From: Ignavibacteria bacterium
GTDB lineage: Bacteria > Bacteroidota > Ignavibacteria > Tepidaquicellales > OLB5
Reading direction: 5' to 3'
NCBI GenBank assembly: GCA_017303675.1
Contig: JAFLBX010000002.1
Span: forward strand, 186,001-250,000
DNA length: 64,000 nucleotides
Below, piece after piece: positions 3,299 through 25,611 of the stretch (its first letter is position 1; every line of letters begins with the position of its first letter). Under the pieces are notes generated by a model. The model saw nothing but the letters and a program-made list of their open reading frames with translations, did no database searches and was not told the origin of the DNA. A program made the translations under genes and the position numbers.

Positions 3299-4099
3299 TT
3301 ATACTTTCTTCGCTATCACGTATGCCATTACTATCAATGGTACCGATACAAGCCCGAATGCAAAGATCTTAAAGAATTCTGCAGTAAGTAATGCTTCTTC
3401 CATGCTGTCATTCAGCACAAAACCCAGCACATAACATATAATGCTGGTTATGACAAATGCTGCTATACTTAAGCCGAAGAGTATCCTGAACGGAGCTTCG
3501 CTTTTTGCCGGGTAAATGTTGGAATACACCTGCCCTGAAGAAGCTTCAACAAGCGCCGTATAGCTTTGCCCGCCGAAATTATAATAGAACTGGTAGAATG
3601 GTATATGTACCAGCGCAGCTTCCTTTACTATATCAAGGCTTACGCCTGAACCCTGCAGCCATGCCTGTGCTGAATCATAAAGCACATCAGGCTTAACTAT
3701 TTCATGGGCATTGTGTACGTTTTTATCATAGAACTTCAAAGCACCGGCAGGGATCTGAAGCTTTTTAATTTCAGATACTGATGTGCTTGCAGCAGGCTGA
3801 AGGAAAATCTTATCGCCTGAGCCGTCCTTGGTCTTAAAATACCAGACAGGGAAGTAATAAAACTCGCTTTTAACTATCTGCGCCTTCTGGTCAAGATCTT
3901 TTACGGTATGGTTACCTGACATCCAGCGTTTTAAATTGCCTTCTGCCTCGTTTGGTTTGAAGTTTGAATGGATAAGGTAATGGAAAACTACTTTTCTTTT
4001 ATCTAAGAATAAAGCCGATGCACAAAACGGACATTCTATAAAAGTTTCATCCTGTTGTACAGTAACATCAGCCCCGCATTGTGTACATTTTATTTGCAT
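3299..4099 (-). CDS. Zinc-ribbon membrane protein, paralogue of the downstream gene
   Basis: A 266-residue protein with an N-terminal zinc ribbon (IKCTQCGADV and IECPFCASAL), the operon's shared aromatic motif EFYYFPVWYFKTKDG (about residues 87-101), a second similar element LVHIPFYQFYYNFGGQSY, and two C-terminal membrane helices (about 204-230 and 243-263). It starts at ATG 4099. Sequence layout shows it is a shorter paralogue of the 2170-3255 protein. It lies directly downstream of the SPFH gene, separated by a 225-base gap holding two hairpin repeats. It may act as a membrane tether for the SPFH protein; this is inferred from the YdjGHI locus. Confidence 0.7.
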   Translation of the reverse strand: MQIKCTQCGADVTVQQDETFIECPFCASALFLDKRKVVFHYLIHSNFKPNEAEGNLKRWMSGNHTVKDLDQKAQIVKSEFYYFPVWYFKTKDGSGDKIFLQPAASTSVSEIKKLQIPAGALKFYDKNVHNAHEIVKPDVLYDSAQAWLQGSGVSLDIVKEAALVHIPFYQFYYNFGGQSYTALVEASSGQVYSNIYPAKSEAPFRILFGLSIAAFVITSIICYVLGFVLNDSMEEALLTAEFFKIFAFGLVSVPLIVMAYVIAKKV

Positions 4100-20426: not shown

Positions 20427-22490
20427 ATGAAAATTTCACTGAATTGGTTACGAAATTATATTGATATTTCTCTTTCAGTCGATGATCTGGTTAAAGGATT
20501 AACCGATCTGGGAATTGAAGTAGAAAGTGTTGAAGATCAGCAGAAAAAGCTTGATAAATTTGTCATTGGAAAGGTTTTAGAACGTTCCAAGCATCCAAAT
20601 GCAGATAAATTAAGTGTTTGTAAAGTAGATGCCGGCACTGGAGAGATTCTGAATATTGTATGCGGCGCGCCGAACGTAGATGCAGGGCAGACTGTATGCG
20701 TTGCACTGGTTGGGGCTATTGTTCCAGCCGGCGGTTTTGAAATTAAAAAAGCGAAGCTGCGCGGTGAAGTATCAGAAGGAATGATATGTTCAGCTAAAGA
20801 GCTTGAGCTTGGCGATGATCATTCCGGAATTATGGTCCTAGATACAAATTTACCGGTAGGCACACCATTTGCAGAGTATCTGAAACAAAACGATGTTGTT
20901 CTTGAAATAGGTATAACTCCCAACAGGGGAGACCTGCTTTCACACATTGGGATAGCAAGAGAGCTTGGCGCTTTGACCGGCAATAAGCTGAAGGAACCCG
21001 TGCTGAAAAATGATTTTGAGGGCAGCGAAATAAATAATAAAATTTCAGTTAATATTGAAAATACCAAAGGCTGCTTAAGATACTGCGGTGCAATGGTTGA
21101 AGGTATTTCTGTAAAGGAATCACCTGACTGGCTAAAAAATGCGTTAACTGCTGTTGGGCTCAGACCCATTAACAATATTGTAGATATTACAAATTATGTA
21201 ATGATGGAATGCGGGCAGCCGCTGCACGCTTTTGATTATAATACGATCGCAGGCAGCAAAATTACTGTTCGTTCAGCGGGCAGCGATAAAAAATTTAAAA
21301 CGCTTGACAGCAAAGAACGTCGTTTGCGTGAAGATGTACTTATGATTTGTGACGGTGAAAAACCCGTTGCCCTTGCAGGTATTATGGGAGGCGAAAATTC
21401 AGAAATAAATAATTCCACAACAAATGTATTTATTGAAAGCGCATATTTTGATCCTGTATTAACTCGCCTGTCATCCAAATTCCTGGGTTTGCAGTCTGAT
21501 TCATCTTACAGGTTTGAGCGTGGTGTAGATATTGAACGCACCGAATGGGCATGCAAACGCGCTGCTGAATTAATTGCTGAAATCGCAGGCGGAAAAATAG
21601 TCAGCGGTTTTATTGATAACTACCCAAATAAGCTTGAAAAACTTAAAGTTCCTTTAAGGCTTTCACATCTGAACCGAATTGCCGGGACTGAATATTCACC
21701 CGAAAGAACAATTGAGCTGCTGGGAAGTATCGGTATATCAAATTTAACCGGTAAAAATAGCGGTTATGAATTTGAAATACCTCAATCTAGAAGAGAAGAT
21801 CTAACCCGCGAAATTGATCTTATAGAAGAGGTTATAAGACTTGATGGCTATGATAAAATTGAGATCTCTGATCATTCATCCTTATATTATGATACCCGTG
21901 AATTTTCGGGGAAAGAATATGATATGCTTCGTGAAGTCAGAAAATATATTATCGGCAGGGGATTTAAGGAAATAATTTCAAATACACTGGTTGAAGAAAA
22001 TTTTCAGAAGCTATTAAGTGAGAATTATGTTAAGCTGATGAATCCTTCAAGCGATAAAATGAATGTATTGCGTAGCGAATTATATTCAGGTTTATTTGAA
22101 GTTATAAAGCTTAACTTTGAAAATTCAAATAATTCACTCAAATTGTTCGAAACCGGAAATTCATTCAGCTTGAATGAAAAAGGGGAAATTAAAGAAACAA
22201 AGAATATTTTGCTTGTTATGGCAGGGGAATATGACTTTAAGACATTTGACCAAAAACAGCGAAATTTCAGCATTTTGGATATGGTGAATGAGGCTGAAGG
22301 ATTGTTTGAAAAATTAAGCGTTGAAAATATCAAAAAATATGATTATAATGCCCAAAATGCTTTGATGGATTATTCCATAGAATACAAAAGCCGGAACAAT
22401 GTTGTTTGTAAGATCATTAGCTTCTCCGGTAAATTCTTAAATTCAATTGGAATAGAAAGACCTGTGATAATATGTCAGATACCATATTAA
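20427..22490 (+). CDS. pheT: Phenylalanine-tRNA ligase beta subunit, N-terminal 687 residues (split gene)
   Basis: The reading frame holds the usual PheT order: a tRNA-binding OB domain (about residues 40-150; GKVLERSKHPNADKLSVCKV), the B3/B4 editing domain (about 205-375; GGENSEINNSTTNVFIESAY), the B5 domain (about 400-470) and the catalytic-like core (about 480-680). It stops at 22490 without the C-terminal FDX-ACB (anticodon-binding) domain, which continues in another frame from 22472. Together the two segments would span about 798 residues, the normal PheT length. Cause: a one-base deletion, sequencing error, programmed -1 shift or true two-chain subunit. PheS is not nearby. Confidence 0.93.
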   Translation: MKISLNWLRNYIDISLSVDDLVKGLTDLGIEVESVEDQQKKLDKFVIGKVLERSKHPNADKLSVCKVDAGTGEILNIVCGAPNVDAGQTVCVALVGAIVPAGGFEIKKAKLRGEVSEGMICSAKELELGDDHSGIMVLDTNLPVGTPFAEYLKQNDVVLEIGITPNRGDLLSHIGIARELGALTGNKLKEPVLKNDFEGSEINNKISVNIENTKGCLRYCGAMVEGISVKESPDWLKNALTAVGLRPINNIVDITNYVMMECGQPLHAFDYNTIAGSKITVRSAGSDKKFKTLDSKERRLREDVLMICDGEKPVALAGIMGGENSEINNSTTNVFIESAYFDPVLTRLSSKFLGLQSDSSYRFERGVDIERTEWACKRAAELIAEIAGGKIVSGFIDNYPNKLEKLKVPLRLSHLNRIAGTEYSPERTIELLGSIGISNLTGKNSGYEFEIPQSRREDLTREIDLIEEVIRLDGYDKIEISDHSSLYYDTREFSGKEYDMLREVRKYIIGRGFKEIISNTLVEENFQKLLSENYVKLMNPSSDKMNVLRSELYSGLFEVIKLNFENSNNSLKLFETGNSFSLNEKGEIKETKNILLVMAGEYDFKTFDQKQRNFSILDMVNEAEGLFEKLSVENIKKYDYNAQNALMDYSIEYKSRNNVVCKIISFSGKFLNSIGIERPVIICQIPY

Positions 22491-22822
22491 GTTTAAGCAA
22501 AACTTTAAATCATAAAACTGTTTTTGAACCGTTCTCTAATTTTCCGCCTGTTTTGCGTGACCTGTGCATACTTGCAGATAGCAGTATAAAACAGGGTGAT
22601 ATAATGGATACAATACTTTCGGTAAATACAGGTAAGTTATTAAAGAATGTATCATTATATGATATCTATGAACCTAAAAATGAGGGTTCAAAAAAGAGTT
22701 ATACGTACAGCCTTGAATACAGGGCAGGCGACAGAACTTTGACAAACGAAGAGGTCAATAAGCTTCAGGATAAAATTGTTGCTGAGCTTGCCAAAAAGAT
22801 CAAGGCAGAATTAAGAAAATAA
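22472..22822 (+). CDS. pheT: PheT C-terminal FDX-ACB domain as a separate reading frame
   Basis: A 116-residue frame, shifted -1 relative to the preceding one and overlapping it by 19 bases. VFEPFSNFPPVLRDLCILAD and YDIYEPKNEGSKKSYTYSLE, then RTLTNEEVNKLQDKIVAELA, are hallmarks of the FDX-ACB anticodon-binding domain at the end of PheT. An ATG opens it at 22472, but upstream there is no good ribosome-binding site. The shifted frame is open only from 22433, so any frameshift must occur between 22433 and 22490. Sequence conservation up to its end argues against long-standing decay. Confidence 0.88.
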   Translation: MSDTILSLSKTLNHKTVFEPFSNFPPVLRDLCILADSSIKQGDIMDTILSVNTGKLLKNVSLYDIYEPKNEGSKKSYTYSLEYRAGDRTLTNEEVNKLQDKIVAELAKKIKAELRK

Positions 22823-22863: not shown

Positions 22864-23223
22864 ATGGATAATTCAATACTAAAAGTAAACGATTCCGGTT
22901 TAAAAAATGAGCTTGAGAAAATGTTCTCAAAAGTGAAAGTATTGGTTGAAAAATTCAATATTTCAAAAGATGAGAACAAATTACTCAAAGAAAAGGTTAA
23001 AGAACTTGAGCATGCATTAAGCGATGCAGAGATTGAGGTTTCTAACAGGAATAGTGAGCTTTTAGCTAAAGATAAGGAAATTACAGATTTAAAGAATAAA
23101 ATTCTGGAAGAAAGAAAAAATAAAGTTTCAGGTGAAGATAAAGCTCAGTTAAAATCAAGGATTCGTGAACTTATGGTCAGGCTAGATACTCATCTCGAAC
23201 AGAAAACAAATAATAACTTTTAG
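22864..23223 (+). CDS. Coiled-coil protein upstream of zapA
   Basis: A 119-residue hydrophilic protein. Nearly the entire length from residue 12 to 110 shows heptad patterning (KVLVEKFNISKDENKLLKEK, VKELEHALSDAEIEVSNRNS), with no signal or membrane segment. Its location between pheT and zapA and its coiled-coil make-up suggest a cytoplasmic cell-division helper of ZapB-like type, but no family signature was recognised. ATG 22864, with AGGGGAT further upstream as a poor ribosome-binding site. Confidence 0.65.
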   Translation: MDNSILKVNDSGLKNELEKMFSKVKVLVEKFNISKDENKLLKEKVKELEHALSDAEIEVSNRNSELLAKDKEITDLKNKILEERKNKVSGEDKAQLKSRIRELMVRLDTHLEQKTNNNF

Positions 23224-23340: not shown

Positions 23341-23640
23341 ATGGACTCAAAGGATATCAGGATCAAAATATTCAACAATCATTACACACTTAAGGGTGAT
23401 GATGTTGAGCTGCTCGAAAAAAGTGCGCAGTATGTAGATACATTAATGCATAAAGTACAAAATGATATTCCAAACCAGTCTGATTTTACAGTGGCTATAG
23501 TTTCTGCATTAAATATAGCAGAAAATTATTACAGGGAAAAGAACTCAAGCTTTGTTCTTGACCAGAATTATAAATCATTGATCGGAAATCTGAACTCTCA
23601 GGTTAAAGAAATAAATGATTATATAGACAGCAACACCTGA
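23341..23640 (+). CDS. zapA: Cell division protein ZapA
   Basis: A 99-residue protein. The N-terminal globular part, KDIRIKIFNNHYTLKGDDVE, then LLEKSAQYVDTLMHKVQND, matches ZapA. The coiled-coil tail includes TVAIVSALNIAENYYREKNS, the conserved 'AlniaeE' helix. ZapA binds and cross-links FtsZ filaments at the division ring. It precedes a structured RNA region that looks like 6S RNA, and rny, a gene order known from many bacteria (zapA next to ssrS). Confidence 0.85.
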   Translation: MDSKDIRIKIFNNHYTLKGDDVELLEKSAQYVDTLMHKVQNDIPNQSDFTVAIVSALNIAENYYREKNSSFVLDQNYKSLIGNLNSQVKEINDYIDSNT

Positions 23641-24042: not shown

Positions 24043-25611
24043 ATGCTTCAGGAAATTTATGTATTAGTGCCATTGATCGTCATACTCTGTGCGGCGACAT
24101 TTTATCTTGGATGGTTCATGCAGAACAAGGTAACAAAAGGCAAGATAAACAGCGCAGAGGAACAGTCAAAACGTATTATCGCCGATGGCGAAAAGGCAGC
24201 TTTAAATATCAAAAAAGAAAAGCTGCTGGAAGTAAGGGACGAATGGTACAAAAAGAAACAGGAATTTGATGCTGACTACCAGTCCAAAAAGAACAAGCTT
24301 AAATCATTCGAAAAACAGCTTCAGGATAAAGAAGAAGTTATCAGCAAAAGGATCGATGAATATGCCAAAAAGGAAAAATCGATAAATAAGCTCGAAAATG
24401 ACTTCAATAACAAGATCAATTCCTTAAATGATAAAGAAACAAAGCTTGAAAGCCTGATACAGGAACAGAACAACAGGCTTGAGAATATTTCTGGTCTTAC
24501 CGCTGAAGAAGCCAAGACCATTTTGATGAATAATCTCATCGAAGAAACTAAAATGCAGACTGCAACCAGGCTGAAAGAGATCCGCGATGAAATGAAGCTC
24601 GAAGCCAAAAAGCTTGCGCGTAACCTGATTGTACAGGCTATTCAGCGGAGCGCTGCTGATCATTCAGTTGAAACCACGGTAAGTGTGCTGAATATCCAGA
24701 GCGATGAGCTCAAAGGAAGGATCATCGGCAAGGAAGGCAGAAATGTCCGTGCATTTGAAGCGGCTACGGGCGTGGATATTATTGTTGATGATACACCGGA
24801 AGCAATAACAATTTCAGGCTTCGATCCGTTCAGGCGTGAAGTTGCCAAGATCTCCATGGAGCGTTTGATTGCTGACGGCCGTATTCATCCTACAAGGATT
24901 GAGGAAGTAGTTGAAAAGGTCCGTAAAGAGCTTGAAGAGGAAATTATCCGTGTCGGCGAGAATTCCATAATTGAATGCGGCTTACACGGTCTGCATCCTG
25001 AAATGATAAGGTATGTAGGCAGAATGAAATACCGCACAAGCTACGGTCAGAACCTGCTGCAGCACAGCATTGAAGTAGCGCATTTATGCGGCATTATGGC
25101 TGTTGAGCTTGGCTTAGACCCGGTAATGGCTAAACGCGCGGGATTGCTGCATGATATCGGCAAAGTGATTGACCGCGAAGTTGAAGGACCGCACGCCATA
25201 CTTGGATATGAGCTTGCCAAGAAGTATAAAGAGCACCCGGTTGTATGTAATGCTATTGGCGCTCATCATGAAGATATGGAAATGGAAACACCGATAGCAG
25301 TTATTGTTCAGGCATGCGATGCCATCAGCGGGGCACGCCCCGGCGCAAGGCGCGAATCGGTTGAAGGGTATGTAAAACGCCTGCAGAAGCTGGAAGAAGT
25401 CGCAAAATCTTTTGAAGGTGTTGGCAGAACCTACGCTATCCAGGCCGGCAGGGAAGTAAGGGTAATAGTTGAGCACGATAAGGTAAGCGATGCTCTGGCA
25501 GACCAGCTTTCAGTTGATATTGCTACAAGGATACAGGAAGAAATGGAATACCCCGGACAGATCAAAGTAACTGTGATCCGTGAACGGCGTTCCGTTGCGT
25601 ACGCAAAATAA
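24043..25611 (+). CDS. rny: Ribonuclease Y
   Basis: A 522-residue endoribonuclease in the expected order: an N-terminal membrane anchor (about residues 6-26), a long coiled coil (about 30-165), a KH RNA-binding domain (about 212-270; [20 protein letters not shown]) and an HD domain (about 335-430; [20 protein letters not shown] and [17 protein letters not shown]). It initiates mRNA decay at the cytoplasmic membrane. ATG 24043 has a GGAG site 12 bases upstream. The next gene, coaE, begins 5 bases after its stop. Confidence 0.97.

What the first reader, a model, noticed from the sequence alone, without database searches (positions are those of the whole stretch)
22433..22490. pheT split into two frames before its FDX-ACB domain
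The first frame ends at 22490 and a -1 frame carrying the intact anticodon-binding domain begins at ATG 22472. The shifted frame is open only from 22433. The combined length equals a normal PheT. The gene is essential, so either the assembly has a one-base error, or the organism uses frameshifting or a two-chain beta subunit.
Basis: partly seen in the sequence, partly recalled or inferred. Interest (0 to 1): 0.6.

Follow-up and report, generated by a model that had tools for sequence, protein, structure and literature searches.

The report
Two-piece bacterial phenylalanyl-tRNA synthetase beta gene
A whole family of uncultured Ignavibacteria appears to make the large subunit of an essential protein-synthesis enzyme as two separate proteins, with the part that reads the tRNA anticodon starting at its own conserved start codon inside the end of the first gene, rather than as the single chain found in nearly all the relatives checked.

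Summary
ORF1 (20427-22490, 687 aa) holds PheT domains B1-B7. ORF2 (22472-22822, 116 aa, -1 frame) holds the whole FDX-ACB/B8 anticodon-binding domain. The same split occurs in 13 of 13 readable genomes of this family (3 genera, many independent projects). Sister-family, class and phylum genomes have one ~800-aa pheT; exceptions looked into were contig ends, an N gap or drafts broken elsewhere. The split clade has one origin (support 100/100). The genome holds one pheT, one pheS and one FDX-ACB domain.

Best explanation: gene fission. A net ~10-nt deletion put B8 in the frame of an out-of-frame ATG; ribosomes start (or restart) there, and the beta subunit works as two non-covalently assembled chains. 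Key evidence: of 143 rapidly changing ORF1 codon columns, only one has an invariant third base, and it supplies the A of ORF2's ATG. No conserved slippery site or RNA structure supports programmed frameshifting. ORF2 is under strong purifying selection.

Split PheT is known from Altiarchaeales (another site, non-adjacent loci) and was engineered in Mycoplasma. This site, arrangement and clade were not found reported. Two-chain synthesis is inferred; no protein data exist here.

The parts
20427..22490 (+). ORF1, pheT N-terminal chain (beta1): tRNA_bind/B2, B3/4 editing domain, B5 and the catalytic-like module B6-B7; 687 aa, ends in TAA 22488-22490
   Evidence: TIGR00472 positions 1-686, 690.7 bits; Pfam tRNA_bind, B3_4, B5, tRNA_synthFbeta; no FDX-ACB
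22472..22822 (+). ORF2, pheT C-terminal chain (beta2): FDX-ACB / B8 anticodon-binding domain with a short N-terminal linker; 116 aa, -1 frame relative to ORF1
   Evidence: PF03147 1-94 of 94, 84 bits; TIGR00472 691-798. AlphaFold pLDDT about 90 over most of the domain, best PDB matches are bacterial PheT chains; low dN/dS
22472..22474 (+). Conserved ATG start codon of ORF2, written across the ORF1 codons NNA TGY
   Evidence: ATG in 13/13 family genomes; the only one of 143 fast-changing codon columns with an invariant third base
22472..22490 (+). ORF1/ORF2 overlap (19 nt here; 16, 19 or 25 nt in relatives), suited to termination-reinitiation coupling
22430..22432 (+). Last upstream stop (TAA) in the -1 frame; limits where any -1 frameshift could occur to 22433-22487

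Best explanation
In the ancestor of this family of Ignavibacteria, pheT underwent gene fission in place. A small deletion (net about 10 nt relative to the sister family) at the junction between the catalytic-like module (B6-B7) and the anticodon-binding domain (B8) shifted B8 into the -1 frame, in register with an out-of-frame ATG. The gene now makes two proteins: a 687-aa chain carrying B1-B7 and a 111-116-aa chain carrying B8. The second chain starts at the conserved ATG that overlaps the end of ORF1, most likely by translational coupling (termination at the ORF1 stop, then reinitiation 13-22 nt upstream). The two chains and PheS would assemble non-covalently into a functional PheRS of the kind (alpha, beta-1, beta-2)2. 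Shown here by sequence: family-wide conservation, single origin, selection on the ATG, purifying selection on ORF2, intact B8 fold (predicted), no other copy in the genome. Inferred: the deletion scenario, production of two chains, coupling, and assembly with PheS.
For: Split in 13/13 readable family genomes of 3 genera; one origin, 100/100; single-chain pheT in the sister family and in the class and phylum samples. One pheT, one pheS and one FDX-ACB in the own genome, so ORF2 is the only anticodon-binding domain. ATG in 13/13, while the codon supplying its A varies among ATA, GTA, TTA, GCA and CTA. Of 143 codon columns with at least 4 different first-two-base pairs, only this one has an invariant third base; background frequency of A before other Cys codons is 42/121. 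ORF2 dN/dS is low and like that of ORF1 (about 0.02-0.13 where dS could be estimated). The ORF2 model folds with confidence and matches bacterial PheT in the PDB. The genome makes little use of Shine-Dalgarno sequences (8/44 ORFs against 3/44 control), and A/T-rich starts like that of ORF2 are usual. A full-length sister gene carries TTA TGC GAA at the homologous place, that is, the out-of-frame ATG. Precedent: PheT split into two polypeptides keeps Mycoplasma pneumoniae viable (PMC12494982), and Altiarchaeales have a naturally split pheT (PMC4975002).
Against: No proteomics, ribosome profiling or biochemistry is available; the named relatives are uncultured MAGs. ORF2 has no evident Shine-Dalgarno sequence. 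The first ~15 residues of ORF2 are modelled with low confidence. How the B8 chain is held on the enzyme was not tested.
Confidence: 0.87

Rival explanations
1. Programmed -1 ribosomal frameshifting within 22433-22487 makes a full-length fused PheT, with the 687-aa chain as by-product.
For: The -1 relation of the frames is constant in all members, and the fused length would be near normal.
Against: No heptamer X_XXY_YYZ is shared; classic ones occur in only 2 of 12 genomes, and the permissible window shrinks to 25-28 nt in two genomes without a classic site. No consistent structure around or after the junction (z-scores scatter around 0). It does not explain the invariant ATG. A fused product would lack about three residues at the B7-B8 junction that the two-chain reading keeps.
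Confidence: 0.08
2. Assembly or sequencing error: one base missing in an ordinary pheT.
For: Common cause of such patterns; one relative (G003) does have an extra frame break at a poly-A run upstream, and G205 outside the family has an N gap.
Against: The same arrangement occurs in 13 genomes of 3 genera from many independent projects, with divergent sequence (ORF1 identity down to 52%), and with selection on the ATG.
Confidence: 0.01
3. ORF2 is expressed as a separate protein but is not part of PheRS: the enzyme works without B8, as in archaea and eukaryotes, and ORF2 has another role.
For: Archaeal and eukaryotic PheRS lack B8 (PMC3275996), so a PheRS without it can exist.
Against: ORF2 stays in place directly after ORF1, with the conserved overlap and B8 sequence features, in every member, and is the sole FDX-ACB domain of the genome. 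Selection on it resembles that on ORF1.
Confidence: 0.04

Closest known systems
Split pheT of Altiarchaeales (Front Microbiol 2016, PMC4975002)
   Same: Natural, clade-wide fission of pheT into two genes at a domain boundary, with conserved residues kept
   Different: Archaeal enzyme (which lacks B8), split just before B5, pieces on different contigs; here a bacterial enzyme, split between B7 and B8, with the two reading frames adjacent and overlapping
Engineered split PheT of Mycoplasma pneumoniae (Mol Syst Biol 2025, PMC12494982)
   Same: Bacterial PheT in two polypeptides supports life
   Different: Made by engineering, at the B1/B3 linker, second piece driven by an added promoter; here natural and at the B7/B8 junction
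Standard bacterial PheT (TIGR00472)
   Same: All domains and their order are present
   Different: Two frames with a -1 overlapping junction instead of one ~800-aa chain
Programmed -1 frameshifting genes (dnaX, IS elements; from general knowledge)
   Same: Two overlapping frames in -1 relation
   Different: No conserved slippery site or structure; conserved internal ATG instead

Membership tests
Bacterial PheT (TIGR00472) | Full domain set at curated score | tested here: met
   ORF1 690.7 bits (cut-off 402.65) over positions 1-686; ORF2 covers 691-798
Bacterial PheT (TIGR00472) | Single polypeptide of ~800 aa | tested here: not met
   Two frames in 13/13 family genomes
Split (fissioned) synthetase gene | Split shared by a clade rather than sporadic | tested here: met
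   One clade, 100/100 support
Split (fissioned) synthetase gene | The second piece has its own start codon under selection | tested here: met
   Invariant ATG; 1 of 143 columns
Split (fissioned) synthetase gene | No intact copy elsewhere in the genome | tested here: met
Split (fissioned) synthetase gene | Pieces made as separate proteins that assemble | not testable with these tools
   Needs proteomics or biochemistry
Programmed -1 frameshifting | Conserved slippery heptamer in the overlap | tested here: not met
   Classic site in 2 of 12 genomes only
Programmed -1 frameshifting | Stimulatory downstream structure | tested here: not met
   No consistent z-score in windows around and after the junction; pseudoknots not tested

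The most novel reading that the evidence does not exclude
A naturally evolved three-gene bacterial PheRS in which the anticodon-binding domain is a separate, possibly exchangeable or separately regulated subunit, so that charging of tRNA-Phe depends on non-covalent recruitment of the anticodon reader.
Probability: 0.3. Interest if true: 0.75.

Novelty: new variant of a known kind. Interest (0 to 1): 0.55.

Why it matters
PheRS is essential and nearly universal. A lineage that has kept its beta subunit in two pieces over deep divergence suggests that the anticodon-binding domain need not be covalently attached. The split is a rare shared character for a family of Ignavibacteria and gives a natural system to test how a synthetase couples anticodon reading to catalysis. 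It also warns that annotation pipelines and marker-gene sets may call this gene frameshifted or pseudo.

Tried and rejected
Assembly error: rejected by conservation. Programmed frameshifting: looked for classic and relaxed slippery sites in the permissible window and for structure; none conserved. A second intact pheT or another FDX-ACB in the genome: none. Splits elsewhere in the class: apparent candidates were contig ends, an N gap (G205) or drafts broken in other places. Rfam scan of the window: nothing. Literature: no paper holding both Ignavibacteria and phenylalanyl-tRNA synthetase; pheT fission only in Altiarchaeales.

Full report
Observation. ORF1 runs 20427-22490 (687 aa). The -1 frame is closed by TAA at 22430-22432, opens at 22433, has its first ATG at 22472 and ends at 22822. 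ORF1 matches TIGR00472 over positions 1-686 of 798 and ORF2 over 691-798. Pfam places tRNA_bind, B3_4, B5 and the catalytic-like module in ORF1, and a complete FDX-ACB domain (1-94 of 94) in ORF2. The break therefore lies at the B7/B8 junction.

Not an error. The window lies in a 3.65-Mb, two-contig genome (G000) with a single pheT, a single pheS over the family cut-off, about 45 kb upstream of pheT, and a single FDX-ACB domain. All family relatives whose contigs reach the junction show the same arrangement: 12 read in full (G000 itself included) plus G003, whose junction is intact although it has an additional frame break upstream at a poly-A run. The two remaining family genomes are cut by contig ends before the junction. 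Identity to the window's ORF1 goes down to 52% within the family, so the split is old.

Distribution. In the same order, the sister family f2 has one ~800-aa frame. In a class sample of 245 genomes, the listed pheT genes outside f1 nearly all span the whole model in one frame. The low-scoring ones were opened separately and are mostly contig-end fragments; G205, which looked like a similar split, has Ns at the break. A few class drafts (e.g. G173, G035) are broken at other places and were not followed up. In a phylum sample of 138 genomes, 137 have an FDX-ACB match; it sits in a frame of about 800 aa or more in all of these except G000 (129 aa) and two with ~600-aa frames (G328, G343), which still reach far upstream of B8. 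A tree of ORF1 with full-length relatives puts the split genes in one clade (100/100) with a single change of state.

How the second frame is started. In every member the codon of ORF1 before a Cys codon ends in A, so that NNA TGY writes ATG in the -1 frame, 13-22 nt upstream of the ORF1 stop; the overlap is 16, 19 or 25 nt. The amino acid at that codon varies (Ile, Val, Leu, Ala) but the A does not. Among 143 ORF1 codon columns with at least four different first-two-base pairs, this is the only one with an invariant third base. In ORF1, codons before other Cys codons end in A in 42 of 121 cases. This is what selection for a start codon predicts and what frameshifting does not need. ORF2 outside the overlap evolves with low dN/dS, like ORF1. 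Start sites in this genome rarely carry a Shine-Dalgarno motif (8 of 44, control 3 of 44; mechanically called ORFs) and are A/T-rich, so the lack of one before ORF2 is not unusual. The close overlap suits termination-reinitiation; this step is inferred.

Frameshifting tested. Within the permissible window (25-55 nt) classic slippery heptamers occur in 2 of 12 genomes only, and no relaxed site is shared by all. Folding energies around and after the junction do not differ consistently from shuffled sequence.

Origin. Aligned with the sister family, the junction of f1 lacks a net ~10 nt, while ORF1 and ORF2 termini overlap so that both chains keep residues for the B7 end and the B8 linker. A full-length sister gene (L020) reads GTA TTT TTA TGC GAA GTT GAT: an out-of-frame ATG already at the homologous place. 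A deletion could thus have created both the frame change and a usable start in one step. This is inference from present-day sequences, and the exact size of the deletion depends on the alignment of a variable linker.

Structure. The ORF2 model has pLDDT ~83-94 over residues 20-110 and low confidence over the first ~15. Its best PDB matches are bacterial PheT chains (P. aeruginosa 4p71, M. tuberculosis 7k98 and others). In known bacterial PheRS, B8 binds the anticodon loop; it is absent from archaeal/eukaryotic enzymes (PMC3275996).

Known precedents. Altiarchaeales have pheT split before B5 at non-adjacent loci (PMC4975002). M. pneumoniae lives with PheT cut at the B1/B3 linker (PMC12494982). 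Searches of the library found no report of a natural bacterial split or of this site; papers of subscription journals are mostly not covered.

Verdict. A real, clade-wide split of an essential bacterial gene, best read as gene fission with two-chain synthesis (0.87). Protein-level proof is missing.

Noticed in passing
L007 (G003) about 3405-3415: This relative has an additional frame break in ORF1 at a run of A (AAAAAAATATGA), most likely a sequencing error in that draft, while the ORF1/ORF2 junction itself is as in the others.
   Followed up: partly
G325:C27:6327-6602 (phylum survey): The FDX-ACB domain of this genome lies in an open frame of 1375 aa, much longer than a normal PheT; possibly a fusion or a long upstream open frame.
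   Followed up: no
22864-23223: 119-aa, Lys/Glu-rich protein without Pfam match between pheT-ORF2 and zapA (23341-23640); perhaps a ZapB-like coiled-coil protein. RNase Y follows at 24043.
   Followed up: partly
G035:C281:3758-5665: pheT of this sister-family draft is broken in several frames and holds a TGA; looks like a poor assembly rather than a biological split.
   Followed up: no
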